Below, piece after piece: positions 19,860-52,264 of a stretch of DNA of 52,264 nucleotides (position 1 is its first letter; every line of letters begins with the position of its first letter). This stretch comes from a virus. The stretch spans positions 1 through 52,264 of IMG/VR virus record IMGVR_UViG_3300030419_005497; one strand, written 5' to 3'. A program made the translations under genes and the position numbers. Below the pieces are notes generated by a model. It searched no databases, was not told the origin of the DNA, and saw nothing but the letters and a program-made list of their open reading frames with translations.

Positions 19860-20346
19860 CGCTTTTCTTTAAAAAAATTCTACGCACCCCTAAATGCTTC
19901 CTCATACTACTTATTTGGCTCACAGATTTTTCGGGGAAAAACTTGGTTTGCAAGTCTCCCCTTGTCATATAAGCACCGTGGTCAATAAGGATTGCTCTCT
20001 GTTCATTTGTCCAAACAGGAGGTTTTTTGAGGCCCATTTGCATTTTCTTTTGATTTATTTGCACGGGAGTTTTAGAGGGTATAAACTTTTCACTTATTTC
20101 CCTTTGGTTGTAGTCTTTCCAAACATTTAAAAGTATTTGGGTTTCTTCTTCAGTCCAAATTTGATGTTTTTGCATTTTAATATAAAGGCCAAGTTTTTGC
20201 CTTTGCTCTCTTATACCTCTTACCGTCCTATGTGGCAAGAATTTTTTTTGTATCTGCTCCTCGGATAAACGAGGCCAGTTATCTTTGATAATATTTAGTT
20301 CATTGGGCTTCCACCTAATGGACTCAAGGTATTTCTCACTGAACAT
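19840..20346 (-). CDS. Protein with three SANT/Myb-like helix-turn-helix repeats
   Basis: Three similar units of about 50 residues are visible. They start near WKPNELNIIKDNW, WTEEETQILLNVW and WTNEQRAILIDHG, and each continues to a segment like F-P-KT--QI---RMGL. This is the pattern of GcrA/SANT-like DNA-binding repeats found in phage regulatory and homing proteins, so sequence-specific DNA binding is likely. Its start overlaps the pyrophosphatase gene by 52 bases; no later start keeps the first repeat. Confidence 0.75.
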   Translation of the reverse strand: MFSEKYLESIRWKPNELNIIKDNWPRLSEEQIQKKFLPHRTVRGIREQRQKLGLYIKMQKHQIWTEEETQILLNVWKDYNQREISEKFIPSKTPVQINQKKMQMGLKKPPVWTNEQRAILIDHGAYMTRGDLQTKFFPEKSVSQISSMRKHLGVRRIFLKKSVDPEMN

Positions 20347-20843
20347 TGTTTGACTATGGATTTGTTTATTATTTGTTTGGCTTTAGTTTTATTGAACCAG
20401 TTTCCCACCCATACTTTCTTGCCTTCTACGTTCTTGTAGTTTTTAAGAAAATCTTTAGTTATCTCAAGAAAATCATCCTTTAAATCTCTCATAGAGTTGA
20501 CGCTATTAATAAACGTAGGAATACCAAGCATCTTATAGTCCATTTTATCATCTTCGGTCATCTCAAGCCCACCTATTATCTTGCACTCTGAAACGCTACC
20601 CATATTGAAGGAGAACCTAGAGTATATAATAACGTCTAAAGGGTCGCCATCATCTGCGATAGTTTGAGGTATAAACCCATAGTTAACTGGGTAATTCATG
20701 GCACTAATCAAACACCTATCTACCTTAAAGACATTTAAGTCTATATCGTATTCGTATTTTACGTTAGTACCCTTTGGTATTTCTACCACGCAGTTAACAA
20801 CACTAGGACATTTATTACCTAGTGGTACTTGATAATAGTTCAT
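20295..20843 (-). CDS. ppa: Family I inorganic pyrophosphatase
   Basis: The soluble pyrophosphatase signature DDGDPLD lies at residues 64-70. The upstream active-site elements EIPKGTNVKYEYD and MNYPVNYGFIPQT are present, as is a C-terminal NWFNKTKAK region. Length (182) fits bacterial enzymes of 160-180 residues. It hydrolyses pyrophosphate to phosphate, pulling nucleotide polymerisation and activated-sugar synthesis forward. Cytoplasmic, with Mg-binding aspartates present. A phage-encoded copy is unusual. It is followed by the SANT-repeat gene and preceded by a cupin gene with a 4-base overlap. Confidence 0.9.
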   Translation of the reverse strand: MNYYQVPLGNKCPSVVNCVVEIPKGTNVKYEYDIDLNVFKVDRCLISAMNYPVNYGFIPQTIADDGDPLDVIIYSRFSFNMGSVSECKIIGGLEMTEDDKMDYKMLGIPTFINSVNSMRDLKDDFLEITKDFLKNYKNVEGKKVWVGNWFNKTKAKQIINKSIVKQCSVRNTLSPLGGSPMN

Positions 20844-22096: not shown

Positions 22097-22858
22097 CTAA
22101 ATGCCAAAATAGTTTTTCTCATGCTCCCACATTAACTTATTCATATCCTCAAAAGTCTTTATTTCGCTATCTTTTCGACACATATACTCGTATGCCTTTT
22201 TGTCGCTCGACCATTTTTCACCATCCCAAAACTCAAAACCTGTAAAATCTCTTTTGTATATGCAAGTTTCTTCGTATCCCGACATCATATACAGATAATC
22301 CATTCCATTTTCTTTCGCGTATTCTATCTCTTTTATGATGCTATATTTCCCAAGTGAAATTGATGGTTTGTGATAATCCCAACAAAATTGAAGTCCCGTC
22401 ATAGAGTTTGAACCAGAGTAAGTTCTCAATAAGGTGAACGCTCTCAAAACTCCTTCGTCGTAATACTGGAAAACTATCTTCTTATCCTTGTCTATTTCCT
22501 CCTTTAGCGATAAGGCTCCAAGGTCATCGCTAAAGCCTCTGTGCTTCATGTATCTATCGTACAAATCTTGAAGCTCATCAATGTTTGCGTTCTCCAGAGA
22601 CTTTATTTCGTGAGATACGCTTGGACATCGACGTAATATCCTATTTGTTTTTTTGTTATATTTAAGTTCTGAAACCTTGAGTCTTACTTGGCGAGCTTGA
22701 AACCATAATCTGGGAGTTTTTTTAGTCCACTCATCAACTGCCCAGCCATTTTTAAGGGCGTGATCTTCTTCGTTTTCTTCCACTTCTGCATATGCGTTAG
22801 CATAAATCAGACTCATGTCTGTCATCTTGCCAGTGATATGGTGAAAGAATATTTTCAT
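22097..22858 (-). CDS. Aminoacyl-tRNA-protein transferase-like (ATE/Bpt) acyltransferase
   Basis: The 253-residue protein carries the GNAT-type C-terminal layout of arginyl/leucyl-tRNA-protein transferases (ATE1/Bpt). RLKVSELKYNKKTNRILRR corresponds to their SRSQRRVLRRN element. YMKHRGFSDDL follows, then LGKYSIIKEIEYAKENGMDY-LYMMSGYEETCIYKRDF, matching the LGTYSI---IE-A---G--YLYLGY---GC-KM-YK region, and a terminal WDGEKW. These enzymes transfer Arg or Leu from tRNA to protein N-termini to mark them for degradation. The usual N-terminal Cys-containing domain is not evident, so the substrate may differ. Confidence 0.68.
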   Translation of the reverse strand: MKIFFHHITGKMTDMSLIYANAYAEVEENEEDHALKNGWAVDEWTKKTPRLWFQARQVRLKVSELKYNKKTNRILRRCPSVSHEIKSLENANIDELQDLYDRYMKHRGFSDDLGALSLKEEIDKDKKIVFQYYDEGVLRAFTLLRTYSGSNSMTGLQFCWDYHKPSISLGKYSIIKEIEYAKENGMDYLYMMSGYEETCIYKRDFTGFEFWDGEKWSSDKKAYEYMCRKDSEIKTFEDMNKLMWEHEKNYFGI

Positions 22859-27793: not shown

Positions 27794-28085
27794 TTTCTTC
27801 TTTTTCCATCTCTCTTACCCACTCAGTAACGTGGTCGTATTCATCCTGAATCCACGTACAAAGCTGTCTTGATTCTTCTTTACGTAAAACTAACTGGTCG
27901 TCATAATAATTGCCCTTAAATAAAGCCAAGTAACACAGCTTCAGTCTCATCCACCAAGTTAACTTAACGGGGTTTATACCCTCTCGCCAAAAACTAACAT
28001 AGATTTCTTCTTCGCCGTCAAACTTGGTAAGTAGCATACCTTCGCCGTGACAACTGCATTTTATGAATTTTTCTCGATCAGCCAT
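27777..28085 (-). CDS. Conserved phage protein with CSCHGEGM motif (102 aa)
   Basis: I chose the ATG at 28085, inside the end of guaC, because related phage proteins begin near the CSCHGEGM motif. The rest ([20 protein letters not shown], then [14 protein letters not shown]) fits a recurrent phage family of unknown function. The Cys pair could bind metal. Confidence 0.72.
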
Positions 28086-29238
28086 TCTTTCCAAATACTT
28101 CGTTTGATTGCTGAGTGACTCTAACGAAAGTTGCACATTTGGGCATATCCTTTATCCTCTTAGCCCCAATATAAGTACAAGTAGAGCGCAACCCGCCAAG
28201 AATACTTTCCATAGTGTCTTTAAGTCTTCCGCGATGTTTTATCCTTACTGTTTTTCCTTCTGACGAACGATAGCTCGCAACGCCACCATGATACTTGTTC
28301 ATGGCTGTATCAGAACTCATTCCGTAAAATGCTTTGTAAGTCTCTCCATTTACTATTTCTTCTTGCCCCGCTGATTCATTATGACCAGCCAGCATCCCGC
28401 CCAACATAACAAAATCAGCACCAGCACAAAAGGCCTTGGCCACATCGCCAGCGCACACGCACCCCCCATCAGCCATAATATGCCCACCAATCCCATGTGC
28501 AGCATCCGCGCATTCAATGACCGCGCTGAGTTGAGGATAACCCACACCAGTTTGTATACGAGTAGTACAGACAGACCCGCCGCCAATGCCCACTTTAACA
28601 ATATCTGCTCCACTTAAAAGTATCTCCTCTGTCATTTCGCCAGTAACAACATTGCCAGCGATTATAATAATATGCGGAAATTCTTCACGCACCCTTTTAA
28701 TAAAATCGCAGAACTTGGCACTATAACCATTTGCGATATCAATACAAACAAACTGATTATGGTAAAAATTCCATTGAATGTTTCTAAGATAATCTAAATC
28801 ATCGGTATCTTTTTCGCTATATTTGATTCCAATAGAGGGCGAGAGATGCTTGTAAATTCTGTTTTGCCAACGATCTGAATCTCTATCATATTCCCAATTC
28901 TCTTCATTGGCTTCTTTCTGCTCCTTATTCTTCCAAACTCCATAGCCATTCAATTTGTGCGCCCAAACATCACCATCGTAATGTTTACTTATGCAAGTTA
29001 GGCCGTGATACTGAGCGAGAACTTTACCTGTCTCAAAAGTTCCTACTGTATCCATGTTTGAAGCAACGATAGGAACACCTGTCCAACCGTAACTCGGATT
29101 ACCAGCACCATCTGCCCCAGCGTTCTTGAAGGTGAAAGTACGCATCAAGTCTACCTCACTACGAGACGTAAGCTCTGATCGCTTTGGGCGTAAAAGAACG
29201 TCTTTATAGTCCAGCTTTATATCTGACTCAATTCTCAT
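28078..29238 (-). CDS. guaC: GMP reductase (GuaC)
   Basis: At 386 residues this aligns along its length with bacterial GuaC. The N-terminus [20 protein letters not shown] matches, and the catalytic Cys 224 lies in [24 protein letters not shown] and [16 protein letters not shown] follow, and the C-terminus has [15 protein letters not shown]. It converts GMP to IMP with NADPH and would redirect purines away from GMP. About 40 extra residues near 95-135 replace a shorter loop in the E. coli enzyme. IMP dehydrogenase is the related alternative, but the absence of CBS domains and the GuaC-type motifs favour GMP reductase. Confidence 0.9.
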
Positions 29239-33427: not shown

Positions 33428-34203
33428 GGATTTTTAGCTTTATACCTCAAGGTTTCATCTACCTCAAGCCATGCTGATGGGTCGGGGTCATCTAAGAAGC
33501 TCGCTATATCTTCATAAAAATTACCACGATCCATCCAATCCATTGCTTTATAGGTGTAAGTTTCCAGTAATTTTTTGACCTGTTTAACTTCATCGAAGGC
33601 TATATGGCCCCCATGAATATTTGATTTTTTGTCCATTTCATCAAATTCTTTGAAGTTTTCTTGAATCTTTTTATTGGACTCTCTGCTGGTAGAAGAAATC
33701 ATATCTAACTTAATATCTTCATCTATTTTTAGATCTAAAAAACCTTCCAACTCGGAAAATATATAATCGTAGTCGTAAGCAAATTTTTCATAAAGTAAAA
33801 CTAATTGTGGCCCCCTGTACTTCTTCTTAAATTCATCCATGTAGATAAGTTGTTTCTTGTAATGATAAGAGTCTGTCCACAGAAGTGCTTCATGTTTTAA
33901 TCTAAGTTGTGTTCCGTCAGGCATTACAACTTCAAATTGATTGTCTGGATCTTCAAAGTGAGTCACAAATTTTTCTGTATCCCCCTTGAATCTAGTGACC
34001 CTAATATAAGATAGTAAAGATTCCATAGTATCGCGCTCAGTAATAACGCATGGAGATTTACCATCTAACACATCCTGCGTGGTTCCCATAACGTGGAGCT
34101 TTTTTACATCTTCATTCTTTAGAATCTTTTTAATGCATTGCCATATTAAAGTAGATCCTGTGCGACTTGCACTCATTACGAAAACCTCTTCTTTGTTATT
34201 CAT
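33424..34203 (-). CDS. Sulfotransferase-like protein
   Basis: The 259-residue protein opens with FVMSASRTGSTLI at residues 8-20, the PAPS 5'-phosphosulfate loop of the sulfotransferase family. It ends the core with LLYEKFAYDYDYIFSELEGF-LDLKI, matching the YEDL---P---L---FLGL element. Between them is a helical and polar region. This class transfers sulfate from PAPS to carbohydrates or proteins. It may modify a phage or host surface sugar. An APS-kinase-like gene is found 3.2 kb away. Catalytic base not certain. Confidence 0.75.
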   Translation of the reverse strand: MNNKEEVFVMSASRTGSTLIWQCIKKILKNEDVKKLHVMGTTQDVLDGKSPCVITERDTMESLLSYIRVTRFKGDTEKFVTHFEDPDNQFEVVMPDGTQLRLKHEALLWTDSYHYKKQLIYMDEFKKKYRGPQLVLLYEKFAYDYDYIFSELEGFLDLKIDEDIKLDMISSTSRESNKKIQENFKEFDEMDKKSNIHGGHIAFDEVKQVKKLLETYTYKAMDWMDRGNFYEDIASFLDDPDPSAWLEVDETLRYKAKNP

Positions 34204-35042
34204 GACTTCTTATCCAAATATACTTTCTTTTTTCTTTTATATAGGTCTTTGACTTTAAGCATGGCTATCCTTTCTATCTGCCTTATTCTTTCTCTAGTGA
34301 CGCTAAAAATCTTCCCTATCTCTTCCAAGGTCTGGGGTTCGTCTCCATCGATGCCAAATCTTCTTTCTAGGATTCTTCTTTCTCTTAAAGATAGCTCATG
34401 TAAAATTTTGTGTATTTCTCTAACGTGATTCTCGCCTTCTATTTTCTCAGAGGGGTCTTGAGTATTATTGTCTTTTATTACCTCGTTGAAGCTGTCGCTA
34501 TCCTCATCCTCTCCTACTTTAGAATCTAAAGAGATTATAGCAGATCCAGCCTCTATCATCTCGTTAACCTTCCTAACCGAAATGCCTAGCTCCTTTGAAG
34601 CCTCATTCGGGGTAGGCTTTCTGTCGTGTTTTTCTTGGAAAGCTTCGGCATATTTTAGATAATTTAAATAAATTTGCTTAAGGTAGCATGGCATCCTTAT
34701 CATAGACCCATGATTGCTCAAGGCTCTCATTATCTTTTGCCTTATCCAAAACCCTGCATAAGTAGAAAATTTTGCACCCTTTTGGGGATTGAATCTATCG
34801 ACTGCTTGAATTAAGCCTAGGTTTCCTTCGCTAACTAAATCTTCTAAATCCATGCCTAATCTTTCATAGGATCTAGCTATCTTGATAACTAGCCTTAAAT
34901 TACAGGCGATGAATTTGTTTTTGGCTTTTAGTCTTTCTTTCGGCTTGCCATTTTTTATCTTCAAATAAAGTTCGTTCTCTTCTTTTACCGTAAGAAGGTT
35001 TGGCAATTTTTGCTCTCCGTAAAAACTATACTCCGATTTCAA
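34200..35042 (-). CDS. RpoD-type sigma factor encoded by the phage
   Basis: Sigma70 regions are complete. Region 1.2/2 has RLVIKIARSYERLGMDLEDL, then SEGNLGLIQAVDRFNPQKGAKFSTYAGFWIRQKIMRAL split across the helices. Region 3 follows, with RMPCYLKQIYLNYLKYAEAF. Region 4 has LSLRERRILERRFGID and TLEEIGKIFSVTRERIRQIE. The N-terminal region 1.1 is absent, as in group 2 sigmas. The start codon is a TTG at 35042 overlapping the TGA of the dCMP deaminase gene and preceded by GGGGGTGG. It would redirect host RNA polymerase to phage promoters. Confidence 0.9.
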   Translation of the reverse strand: MKSEYSFYGEQKLPNLLTVKEENELYLKIKNGKPKERLKAKNKFIACNLRLVIKIARSYERLGMDLEDLVSEGNLGLIQAVDRFNPQKGAKFSTYAGFWIRQKIMRALSNHGSMIRMPCYLKQIYLNYLKYAEAFQEKHDRKPTPNEASKELGISVRKVNEMIEAGSAIISLDSKVGEDEDSDSFNEVIKDNNTQDPSEKIEGENHVREIHKILHELSLRERRILERRFGIDGDEPQTLEEIGKIFSVTRERIRQIERIAMLKVKDLYKRKKKVYLDKKS

Positions 35043-42989: not shown

Positions 42990-43253
42990 TTATTTAAAAG
43001 TAGAATTTTCGAAAATAAAGTCCGCTAAATCTCTAACGGTTATTATATCGTTAAAATCCATCATGTAATTGTTTATTTTTATGGAGTGAATTTCTTCCAT
43101 CGCCATCATCATATCTACGGTATCTAAGGAATCTATCTCTAATTGAGAAACGGGGGTATCAAGCGTCACTTCCAAGTCTCCAACTGCCGTGGCATCACTT
43201 ACTTCTTCAAGGACTATTTTATAAATTTTTTCTTTCTTCTCCTTGTCTTCCAT
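42990..43253 (-). CDS. acpP: Acyl carrier protein
   Basis: The 87-residue acidic protein (from the ATG at 43253) has the ACP core EIDSLDTVDMMMAMEEIHSI with Ser42 in DSLD, the site of the 4'-phosphopantetheine, followed by ITVRDLADFIFE. Length and charge fit ACP. It carries acyl intermediates of fatty acid or polyketide-like synthesis. A holo-ACP synthase is encoded two genes upstream in the same operon, so the ACP is probably activated by a phage enzyme. No acyl-transfer or ketosynthase gene is visible in the window. Confidence 0.9.
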   Translation of the reverse strand: MEDKEKKEKIYKIVLEEVSDATAVGDLEVTLDTPVSQLEIDSLDTVDMMMAMEEIHSIKINNYMMDFNDIITVRDLADFIFENSTFK

Positions 43254-43254
43254 T

Positions 43255-43482
43255 TTATATCTCCAATTCAAACTTTAAGCATAGTCCTTTATAAAGCTCC
43301 CTGTGTTCATCTTTTATGTTTTCGCCGCCAATCTTTAATATGTGGTGGATAAAGCCAAGTTTGTAAAACGGGAGAAACTCTATGTCAACCTTTATTTGGC
43401 TTTTAGATAAGCTTACGAGCAAAAACATTAAAACGTCTAGCTCTTCTTCAGATAAAGAATTTATTATATGTCTATAAATCAC
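43255..43482 (-). CDS. Hypothetical protein between AcpS and ACP (75 aa)
   Basis: The GTG start at 43482 lies within the end of acpS, and the stop is one base before the ACP ATG. The product starts MIYRHIINSLSEEELDVLMF and continues as a helical domain. No family is recognised. Its position between the two ACP-pathway genes suggests a role with the carrier protein, which is inference. Confidence 0.6.
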   Translation of the reverse strand: MIYRHIINSLSEEELDVLMFLLVSLSKSQIKVDIEFLPFYKLGFIHHILKIGGENIKDEHRELYKGLCLKFELEI

Positions 43483-43852
43483 CTAAGTTTTTATTCTCTA
43501 TAATGCAAACAGCCGTAGCGTACCCCCCAGAATGACTTATACTTAAAGAGGAGGTAAGTCCTTTCGGTAAGTTATTGTTGGGAAAATAAATTACAGGCTT
43601 TCCTTTTTCGTCCCTCATGATCTCCATTTCCGTAAAAGGAATCATCTCTTTGACGTTGCCTGTTAACGCTTTATGCGCTGCTTCTTTGGCTGCCCATCTA
43701 CCCGCTATAGAGTGAGAGCTATACCCTTTATTAAGGCAGTACTCTTTTTCTCTTTGGGTTAAAAACTTATCTAAAAAACGCTCACCAAAAGAAGACAATA
43801 AGGATTCTATTCTTGGAATATCTTGAATGTCAGTACCAATGCCAACTATCAT
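43472..43852 (-). CDS. acpS: Holo-ACP synthase (AcpS-type phosphopantetheinyl transferase)
   Basis: The 126-residue protein matches AcpS along its length. MIVGIGTDIQDIPRIESLLS has the catalytic Asp8, FLDKFLTQREKEYCL follows, IAGRWAAKEAAHKALTG holds Glu57, and HSGGYATAVCI is near the end. AcpS transfers the phosphopantetheine arm of CoA onto ACP Ser. It overlaps the preceding gene by 4 bases and the following one by 11. A phage copy of AcpS is uncommon. Confidence 0.92.
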   Translation of the reverse strand: MIVGIGTDIQDIPRIESLLSSFGERFLDKFLTQREKEYCLNKGYSSHSIAGRWAAKEAAHKALTGNVKEMIPFTEMEIMRDEKGKPVIYFPNNNLPKGLTSSLSISHSGGYATAVCIIENKNLGDL

Positions 43853-51124: not shown

Positions 51125-52135
51125 ATGAGTAAAACCGGATTATTACTTGATGAAAACACAACTGGCGTAAACCAGATCCTCCCTCATAAACATCAATACG
51201 CTTGGGACCTATTTCTTAAAGGGGTAGCGAATAATTGGTCTCCAGCCGAAATAAACATGTCGGATGACGTAAAACAATGGAAAGGAGATGATTTATCCAA
51301 AGATGAAAAACTACTGGTTAAAAGATGCCTTGGCTTTTTCGCTGGAAGTGAGTCCTTGGTTGGCAATAATTTACTTCTTAATGTCGCGAAATGGATAACT
51401 GATGCGGAGTGCGGTCAATATATAATGAGACAAGCTTATGAAGAGTCTCTTCACAACTGGACAGTTGTAACTTGCTGCGATAGCTACTCATTGAAAATAT
51501 CAGAGGTATACGAAGCATACATTAATGTCCCCTCAATAAAAGCCAAAGACGAGTTTTTAATGGGGATAACCTCAGATATCAACAGGCAAGACTTCACTAC
51601 TAAGACGATAGAAGGGAAAAAAGAATTCCTCAGAAACTTAATTACATACTACATCGTATGCGAGGGAACCTTTTTCTTTAGTGGATTTGCTATGCTCTTG
51701 GCTCTTGGCAGACAAAACAAACTCCCCGGACTTTCTGATCAAATCAGATACACGTTAAGAGATGAAAGCCTACATATTCAATTTGGTACGTACCTAATCA
51801 ACACGATCAAAGAACAATACCCATCGGTGTGGACTAAAAAATTCGAAGAAGAAACAATTGAGCATATTAAAAAAGCCGTAGAGCTTGAGATACAATATGC
51901 CCACGACGTTCTTCCACGAGGCATTCTTGGCTTAAACGCCGAGATGTTTGTTGATTATATGCAGTATATTGGAAACAGAAGGCTTGAAGGTATTGGAATT
52001 GACTTTTCTTTCGAGAACGCTCAAAATCCGTTTCCTTGGCTGTCCGAAGTTGTTGACACTACAGCAATGACGAACTTCTTCGAAAGGAAAGTTAAAGATT
52101 ATCAAAGCTCTGGAGTTCTAGAGGATGATTTTTAA
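51125..52135 (+). CDS. nrdB: Ribonucleotide reductase beta subunit, class Ic-like (NrdB)
   Basis: The 336-residue protein has the metal ligands Glu76 (in GSESLVGNN), Glu107, His110, Glu180, Glu214 and His217, and the Trp of NNWSPAEI. At the tyrosyl radical position (His110 + 4) there is Val114 instead of Tyr, and the first ligand is Glu instead of Asp. Both changes match class Ic enzymes such as that of Chlamydia trachomatis, which use a Mn/Fe cofactor without a protein radical. Residues around the site (RQAYEESLHNW) also resemble Chlamydia. It follows nrdA after one base and precedes the tmRNA. Confidence 0.93.
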   Translation: MSKTGLLLDENTTGVNQILPHKHQYAWDLFLKGVANNWSPAEINMSDDVKQWKGDDLSKDEKLLVKRCLGFFAGSESLVGNNLLLNVAKWITDAECGQYIMRQAYEESLHNWTVVTCCDSYSLKISEVYEAYINVPSIKAKDEFLMGITSDINRQDFTTKTIEGKKEFLRNLITYYIVCEGTFFFSGFAMLLALGRQNKLPGLSDQIRYTLRDESLHIQFGTYLINTIKEQYPSVWTKKFEEETIEHIKKAVELEIQYAHDVLPRGILGLNAEMFVDYMQYIGNRRLEGIGIDFSFENAQNPFPWLSEVVDTTAMTNFFERKVKDYQSSGVLEDDF

Positions 52136-52152
52136 AGTGTAATGAATTTTAC

Positions 52153-52264
52153 GGGAGCGTACTGGTTTCGATTTAGAACCTTACGCAAGATTGCAAGCAG
52201 AGGATGATAGTCGGCCTCTTAAATCATCTATCAAGGTATTCAACTGCCAATAATGTTGATATGG
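52153..52264 (+). ncRNA. ssrA: tmRNA (ssrA), 5' part, truncated at the window edge
   Basis: The sequence opens GGGAGCGTACTGGTTTCGAT, a tmRNA 5' acceptor and D-loop like start. It has TGCAAGC, then AGAGG/CCTCT interleaved with GATGAT/ATCATC, forming the H-type pseudoknot PK1 before the tag. After CAACT comes GCCAATAATGTTGATATG, which reads A-N-N-V-D-M and resembles the start of a tmRNA peptide tag. The 3' tRNA-like half is beyond the window. tmRNA rescues stalled ribosomes and tags proteins for proteolysis. Confidence 0.9.

What the first reader, a model, noticed from the sequence alone, without database searches (positions are those of the whole stretch)
52153..52264. Phage-encoded tmRNA directly after nrdB
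The last 112 bases of the window read as the 5' end of a tmRNA. They carry a family-typical start (GGGAGCGTACTGGTTTCGAT), interleaved AGAGG/CCTCT and GATGAT/ATCATC pairings forming a pseudoknot, and a plausible resume codon with tag beginning A-N-N-V-D-M. Phage tmRNAs are known but uncommon. Together with bS21, two tRNAs and a transferase-like protein this suggests the phage takes over ribosome rescue and protein fate.
Basis: partly seen in the sequence, partly recalled or inferred. Interest (0 to 1): 0.85.

Follow-up and report, generated by a model that had tools for sequence, protein, structure and literature searches.

The report
Phage tmRNA with long conserved tag
A group of uncultured phages carries its own ribosome-rescue RNA (tmRNA), and the peptide tag this RNA adds to stalled proteins is about three times the usual length, with a conserved middle not found in the bacterial genomes or cultured phages searched.

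Summary
The last 112 bases are the 5' end of a one-piece tmRNA, cut by the contig end. Rfam finds it as a 3'-truncated tmRNA (E 5.9e-10). Complete orthologues lie at the same place, 14-15 bases after nrdB, in two other IMG/VR contigs. All 39 distinct full-length relatives keep a paired acceptor stem with the alanine determinant G3-U70 and an encoded CCA.

A phage tmRNA alone is a known kind. What is new is the tag: 29-35 codons in complete long-tag relatives (published range 8-35, commonest 10), with a core around S-[LV]-x-E-A-D-[AE]-[IV]-L-A-x-x-G. The core stays 73-100% identical while the surrounding RNA falls to 40-57%, and its frame is under purifying selection (dN/dS 0.19, against 1.70 and 0.84 in the other frames). 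A tag search found 79 viral loci, all in tmRNA genes, and none in GTDB genomes (one pattern tested), cultured phages or plasmids. The C-terminus, normally the ClpX signal, varies more than the core. No SmpB was found in 36 related contigs. Most likely it works with host SmpB and adds a tag with a helical docking motif. Host and recognising protein are unknown.

The parts
52153..52264 (+). 5' part of a one-piece tmRNA gene, cut by the contig end
   Evidence: RF00023 truncated hit E 5.9e-10; clade profile E 3.4e-29
52153..52159 (+). 5' strand of the acceptor stem, GGGAGCG; relatives with this strand end CGCTTCC-ACCA
   Evidence: 13 of 13 relatives with GGGAGCG pair with CGCTTCC; G3-U70 in 39 of 39
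52199..52219 (+). PK1 stem 1: 52199-52203 AGAGG with 52215-52219 CCTCT
   Evidence: 100% of cells paired, 4 of 5 pairs changed on both sides
52205..52233 (+). PK1 stem 2: 52205-52210 TGATAG with 52228-52233 CTATCA
   Evidence: 93% of cells paired, 4 of 6 pairs changed on both sides
52246..52264 (+). resume codon GCC and first six tag codons A-N-N-V-D-M, then G of the next codon
   Evidence: aligned with complete tags of 29-35 codons in relatives
52138..52146 (+). GTGTAATGA, promoter-like element before the tmRNA (inferred)
   Evidence: GTGTA[AT] at -30 to -5 in 34 of 51 relatives, 0-1 of 51 in other stretches
51125..52135 (+). nrdB, gene directly upstream; synteny marker
   Evidence: tblastn relatives; same junction in L014 and L016

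Best explanation
This is the 5' end of a phage one-piece tmRNA gene. Shown by sequence: it belongs to a phage tmRNA family that keeps the tRNA-like domain with the alanine identity pair G3-U70, PK1, a resume codon with A at -4, and a tag reading frame under purifying selection. Inferred: it is transcribed in infection, probably from its own promoter element, is charged with alanine by the host, binds host SmpB (none found in 36 related contigs), enters ribosomes stalled on cut or non-stop mRNA and adds a tag of about 30-36 residues. The tag core (S-x-x-E cap, E-A-D-x-I-L-A helix, G plus aromatic end) probably folds as a short capped amphipathic helix that serves as a docking signal for a host or phage proteolysis adaptor or protease, in addition to or instead of the usual C-terminal ClpX signal. 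The tmRNA identity is near certain (about 0.97); the docking role is a guess (about 0.4).
For: tmRNA identity. Orthologous nrdB-tmRNA junctions L014 and L016. Translated tag: one open frame of 29-35 codons in complete relatives of the long-tag clade; dN/dS 0.19 in frame against 1.70 and 0.84 out of frame, and the invariant Ser uses both TCN and AGY codons. Core conserved beyond the RNA: 73-100% aa identity while flanking RNA is 40-57% identical in distant members. A tag-only search of IMG/VR returned 79 loci, all in tmRNA genes. SmpB not found in 36 contigs. Upstream motif.
Against: The gene is cut in this contig; its 3' half and most of its tag were not read. No transcription, charging or tagging data exist. 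Many tags still end in -AA like ordinary tags, so classical ClpXP recognition may be enough. The host is unknown.
Confidence: 0.8

Rival explanations
1. Host-copied tag: the phage tmRNA was taken from its host, whose own tmRNA has the same long tag; the phage copy only boosts ordinary ribosome rescue and proteolysis in infection.
For: Many tags end in -AVAA, -ALAA or -QLAA as in ordinary bacterial tags; phage tmRNAs can be of host origin (PMC9004378).
Against: The core was not found in 84,980 GTDB genomes with the pattern A[PL]S[LV]AEAD[EA]. That is one pattern, contigs under 3 kb are not held, and the true host may be missing.
Confidence: 0.25
2. The long tag redirects or protects: tagged products are spared from ClpXP, or sent to a phage-chosen fate, and not degraded by the usual route.
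For: Some groups have ends unlike a ClpX signal (-ELELV, -LVE) while the core is kept.
Against: Most tags still end in small residues such as AA, which fits degradation; there is no functional evidence.
Confidence: 0.15
3. Non-working remnant or SmpB sponge, as suggested for the tag-less tmRNA of mycobacteriophage DS6A.
For: No phage SmpB found.
Against: Acceptor stem, G3-U70, CCA, PK1 and the tag frame are all kept under selection.
Confidence: 0.04
4. Chance resemblance or a chimeric contig end.
For: The window match is short and below the Rfam gathering score.
Against: Profile match E 3.4e-29; same nrdB-tmRNA junction in two independent contigs.
Confidence: 0.01

Closest known systems
Bacterial one-piece tmRNA (ssrA, Rfam RF00023)
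   Same: tRNA-like domain with G3-U70 and CCA, PK1, resume codon, tag frame with stop; nearly all full-length members tested score 73-154 bits, over the 47-bit cut-off
   Different: tag of 29-35 codons with a conserved core; the commonest tag length is 10 aa (PMC11915505) and the quoted range is 8-35 aa with barely conserved positions (PMC11431127); carried by a phage without a detected SmpB
tmRNAs of mycobacteriophages (PegLeg; Bxz1 group) and Bacillus phage G
   Same: phage-borne one-piece tmRNA
   Different: PegLeg's tag reads as AAFVDADYAVAA or AFVDADYAVAA and phage G's as AKLNITNNELQVA, both short, without the EAD-ILA core; Bxz1 was not held and not tested
Two-piece tmRNAs of marine phages (Melnitz and pelagiphages; PMC9004378)
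   Same: marine phage tmRNA; 2.3% of 18,146 phage genomes carried a tmRNA of some form
   Different: those are permuted two-piece and alphaproteobacterial in kind; this one is one-piece
tmRNAs of more distant nrdB relatives (L127, L128, L129)
   Same: one-piece phage tmRNA, CCA encoded
   Different: tags of 19-21 aa (AKNINSVESFSQEGLALAA, AESSQRVVDLDSIELGLEMAA; L129 read by hand as GKNKNRVQAFSPVAEKLALAA), without the core

Membership tests
one-piece tmRNA (RF00023) | overall match to the covariance model | tested here: met
   window part E 5.9e-10, truncated and below the gathering score; complete near relatives 123-154 bits
one-piece tmRNA (RF00023) | acceptor stem closing with the 3' end, G3-U70, CCA | tested here: met
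   in relatives only: 39 of 39 distinct genes, with compensatory changes at pairs 4, 5 and 6; the 3' strand is beyond the window end
one-piece tmRNA (RF00023) | pseudoknot PK1 upstream of the tag | tested here: met
   96% of cells paired, 8 of 11 pairs with changes on both sides, best of all slides
one-piece tmRNA (RF00023) | resume codon and short tag frame ending in a stop | tested here: met
   start seen in the window; full frame and stop in relatives; dN/dS 0.19
one-piece tmRNA (RF00023) | alanylation and tagging of stalled proteins with SmpB | not testable with these tools
   needs experiment; no phage SmpB found in 36 contigs
ssrA degron tags recognised by ClpX at the C-terminus | conserved C-terminal small or hydrophobic residues (LAA type) | tested here: inconclusive
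   many end in -AA, but others in -VA, -TA, -AV, -LVE, -ELELV; the core is more conserved than the end
two-piece (permuted) tmRNA | permuted order of the two pieces | tested here: not met
   contiguous 1-374 matches to the standard model

The most novel reading that the evidence does not exclude
A phage-specific class of tmRNA whose long tag carries a folded docking element for a dedicated (phage or captured host) partner, so that phage trans-translation sends stalled proteins to a fate different from the host's ssrA pathway.
Probability: 0.35. Interest if true: 0.82.

Novelty: new variant of a known kind. Interest (0 to 1): 0.62.

Why it matters
Phage tmRNAs are rarely catalogued (79 unique bacteriophage sequences in the 2025 tmRNA database, PMC11915505) and what they do is not known. 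Here a whole uncultured phage group keeps a tmRNA whose tag peptide is under clear selection in its middle and not mainly at its end. This gives a defined peptide that can be made, fused to a reporter and used to pull out its partner, which makes the question 'why do phages carry tmRNA?' directly testable. It also gives a new candidate degron or anti-degron module.

Tried and rejected
Second PK1 stem as GATGAT/ATCATC: rejected, 71% paired against 93% for TGATAG/CTATCA. Search for the 3' half in the window, including the other contig end, to test circularity: none. blastn of the nrdB-tmRNA region in INPHARED: no match; blastn of a complete relative: only the T-arm end. Tag in INPHARED and PLSDB by tblastn: no relative. 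Tag in GTDB genomes: none by tblastn (one pattern only). nrdB in GTDB genomes to find a host: one contig filed under a Woesebacteria MAG, likely a mis-binned phage contig, not used. Phylum-wide host search could not be run because a genome handle is required. Structure prediction switched off. Resemblance of the tag to UBA-like or other domains: dropped, no credible Pfam or PDB match. ClpP-like protease near the tmRNA: present in 13 of 36 contigs, but also in one with no detected tmRNA and at varying distance, so not claimed as a partner. MFE folding of a whole relative: z -1.46, not informative.

Full report
What was checked. The window is a 52,264-base IMG/VR virus record. Its last complete gene is nrdB (51125-52135), and the contig stops at 52264. 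Rfam's standard tmRNA model matches 52153-52264 as positions 1-115 with the 3' end cut off, 28.6 bits, E 5.9e-10. It is missed at the gathering score and by ARAGORN because most of the gene is absent. Nothing like the missing 3' half was found by pattern elsewhere in the window.

Orthologues. An exact search for the first 20 bases found three other viral contigs. An nrdB search gave 80 related loci and a conserved 23-mer gave 39 stretches. In L014 and L016 a complete tmRNA starts 15 and 14 bases after nrdB, as in the window (17 bases). In other relatives it sits elsewhere: 0.8 kb away in L008, over 4 kb in L052 and L059, much further in others. The closest nrdB relatives (L005-L007) have no tmRNA at that spot. 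Of 36 contigs searched whole, 25 hold a complete tmRNA over the Rfam cut-off; many records are fragments.

It is a real tmRNA. In 39 distinct full-length genes the acceptor stem is fully paired with compensatory changes, G3-U70 (the alanine determinant; established knowledge) is present in all, and CCA is encoded. PK1 is supported by covariation: 96% of cells paired and 8 of 11 pairs changed on both sides, against at most 2 of 11 when slid. The resume codon G and the A at -4, a position known to matter in E. coli (own knowledge), are invariant across the 30 aligned sequences.

The tag is the unusual part. The window shows only A-N-N-V-D-M. Complete relatives of its clade have tags of 29-35 aa, for example ADNNVDMAPSLAEADAILAKFGWTEEVAVAA (L016), ANDNVDMEFAPSVAEADEILAKFGYVEEEALQLAA (L167) and AEDNFDMAMSLEEADAILAQYGFEDAEAELELV (L201). 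For a few distant members (such as L154) the resume codon could not be placed. The commonest length in the tmRNA database is 10 aa (PMC11915505) and the quoted range is 8-35 aa with barely conserved positions (PMC11431127). Searching IMG/VR with the tag alone gave 79 loci; every one has a match to the tmRNA profile at or next to the tag, and the distant ones tested are tmRNAs by Rfam, one of them (L190's contig) below cut-off.

Selection. Across 62 distinct core DNA sequences, third positions vary most (mean entropy 1.17 against 0.34 and 0.47). dN/dS is 0.19 in frame and 1.70 and 0.84 in the other frames, and the invariant serine is coded by both TCN and AGY. These are pairwise averages over related sequences, not a tree-based test. 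In L193 the core is 100% identical to L016 while the RNA on either side is 52% and 40% identical. Part of the core DNA can form a small hairpin (GCGATTCTCGC), so RNA constraint may add to the nucleotide conservation.

Shape and role, inferred. Invariant or nearly invariant residues are S and E (S-x-x-E capping box), A-D, I/V-L-A and G followed by an aromatic residue (Schellman-type end; one exception in L214). This fits a short capped helix with hydrophobic residues on one face. No structure could be computed and no Pfam or PDB sequence matched credibly. The ends vary: -AA in most, -VA, -TA, -AV, -LVE, -ELELV in others. In E. coli the last residues bind ClpX and the first half binds SspB (own knowledge). 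Here the middle is what selection keeps most, so a docking role is the best guess, with redirection or protection as rivals.

Partners. SmpB was not found in 36 related contigs while the same search found it in ten control bacteria, so host SmpB is probably needed. A ClpP-like protease occurs in 13 of 36. An arginyl-transferase-like protein (ATE_C) is in the window and three others. Neither tracks the tmRNA closely enough to be called a partner.

Origin. No relative of the tag was found in GTDB genomes with one 9-residue pattern (variants such as LEEAD were not covered), in INPHARED or in PLSDB. More distant nrdB relatives (about 74% identity) carry tmRNAs with 19-21 aa tags and no core, so the core looks gained or lost within this phage lineage. 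Two of the cultured phages with the best nrdB matches (Pseudomonas phage Voja-6, Acinetobacter phage MD-2021a) have no tmRNA by Rfam. The host is unknown.

Transcription. GTGTA[AT] lies 5-30 bases before the tmRNA in 34 of 51 relatives and in 0-1 of 51 control stretches of the same length. The same motif stands just before several window genes. This suggests the tmRNA carries its own phage-type promoter as it moves between sites. It is a motif count only.

Verdict. Observation confirmed; interpretation partly supported. Phage tmRNA as such is known (402 of 18,146 phage genomes, PMC9004378). The long, core-conserved tag family is a new variant of a known kind.

Noticed in passing
window 22097-22858 (-): Arginyl/leucyl-tRNA-protein transferase-like protein (Pfam ATE_C, E 2.4e-9) in a phage; also in three related contigs. 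Could tag N-termini for degradation, a second protein-fate gene beside the tmRNA.
   Followed up: partly
window 42990-43271 (-) and 43472-43852 (-): An acyl carrier protein gene and a holo-ACP synthase-like gene (ACPS, E 4.6e-18) close together in a phage genome.
   Followed up: no
window 34200-35042 (-): Sigma-70 family factor with regions 2, 3 and 4; might read the GTGTAAATA-like motif found upstream of several window genes and the tmRNA.
   Followed up: no
window 39773, 37573, 24741, 23187 (-) and 52138 (+): Repeated GTGTAA(A/T)-type motif just before gene starts, probably a phage promoter element.
   Followed up: partly
L016 9811-10569 (+): ClpP-like protease about 3.4 kb downstream of the tmRNA, with Ser/His/Asp seemingly kept by eye and an extra N-terminal coiled-coil-like stretch; ClpP-like genes in 13 of 36 related contigs.
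   Followed up: partly
window 28078-29238 (-), 20295-20843 (-): IMP dehydrogenase/GMP reductase and inorganic pyrophosphatase carried by the phage.
   Followed up: no
L206, L210, L212 tmRNA region: Group of phage tmRNAs whose tags end in ELELV and not in the usual AA, with what looks like the end of a tRNA gene (T-arm) directly upstream.
   Followed up: partly
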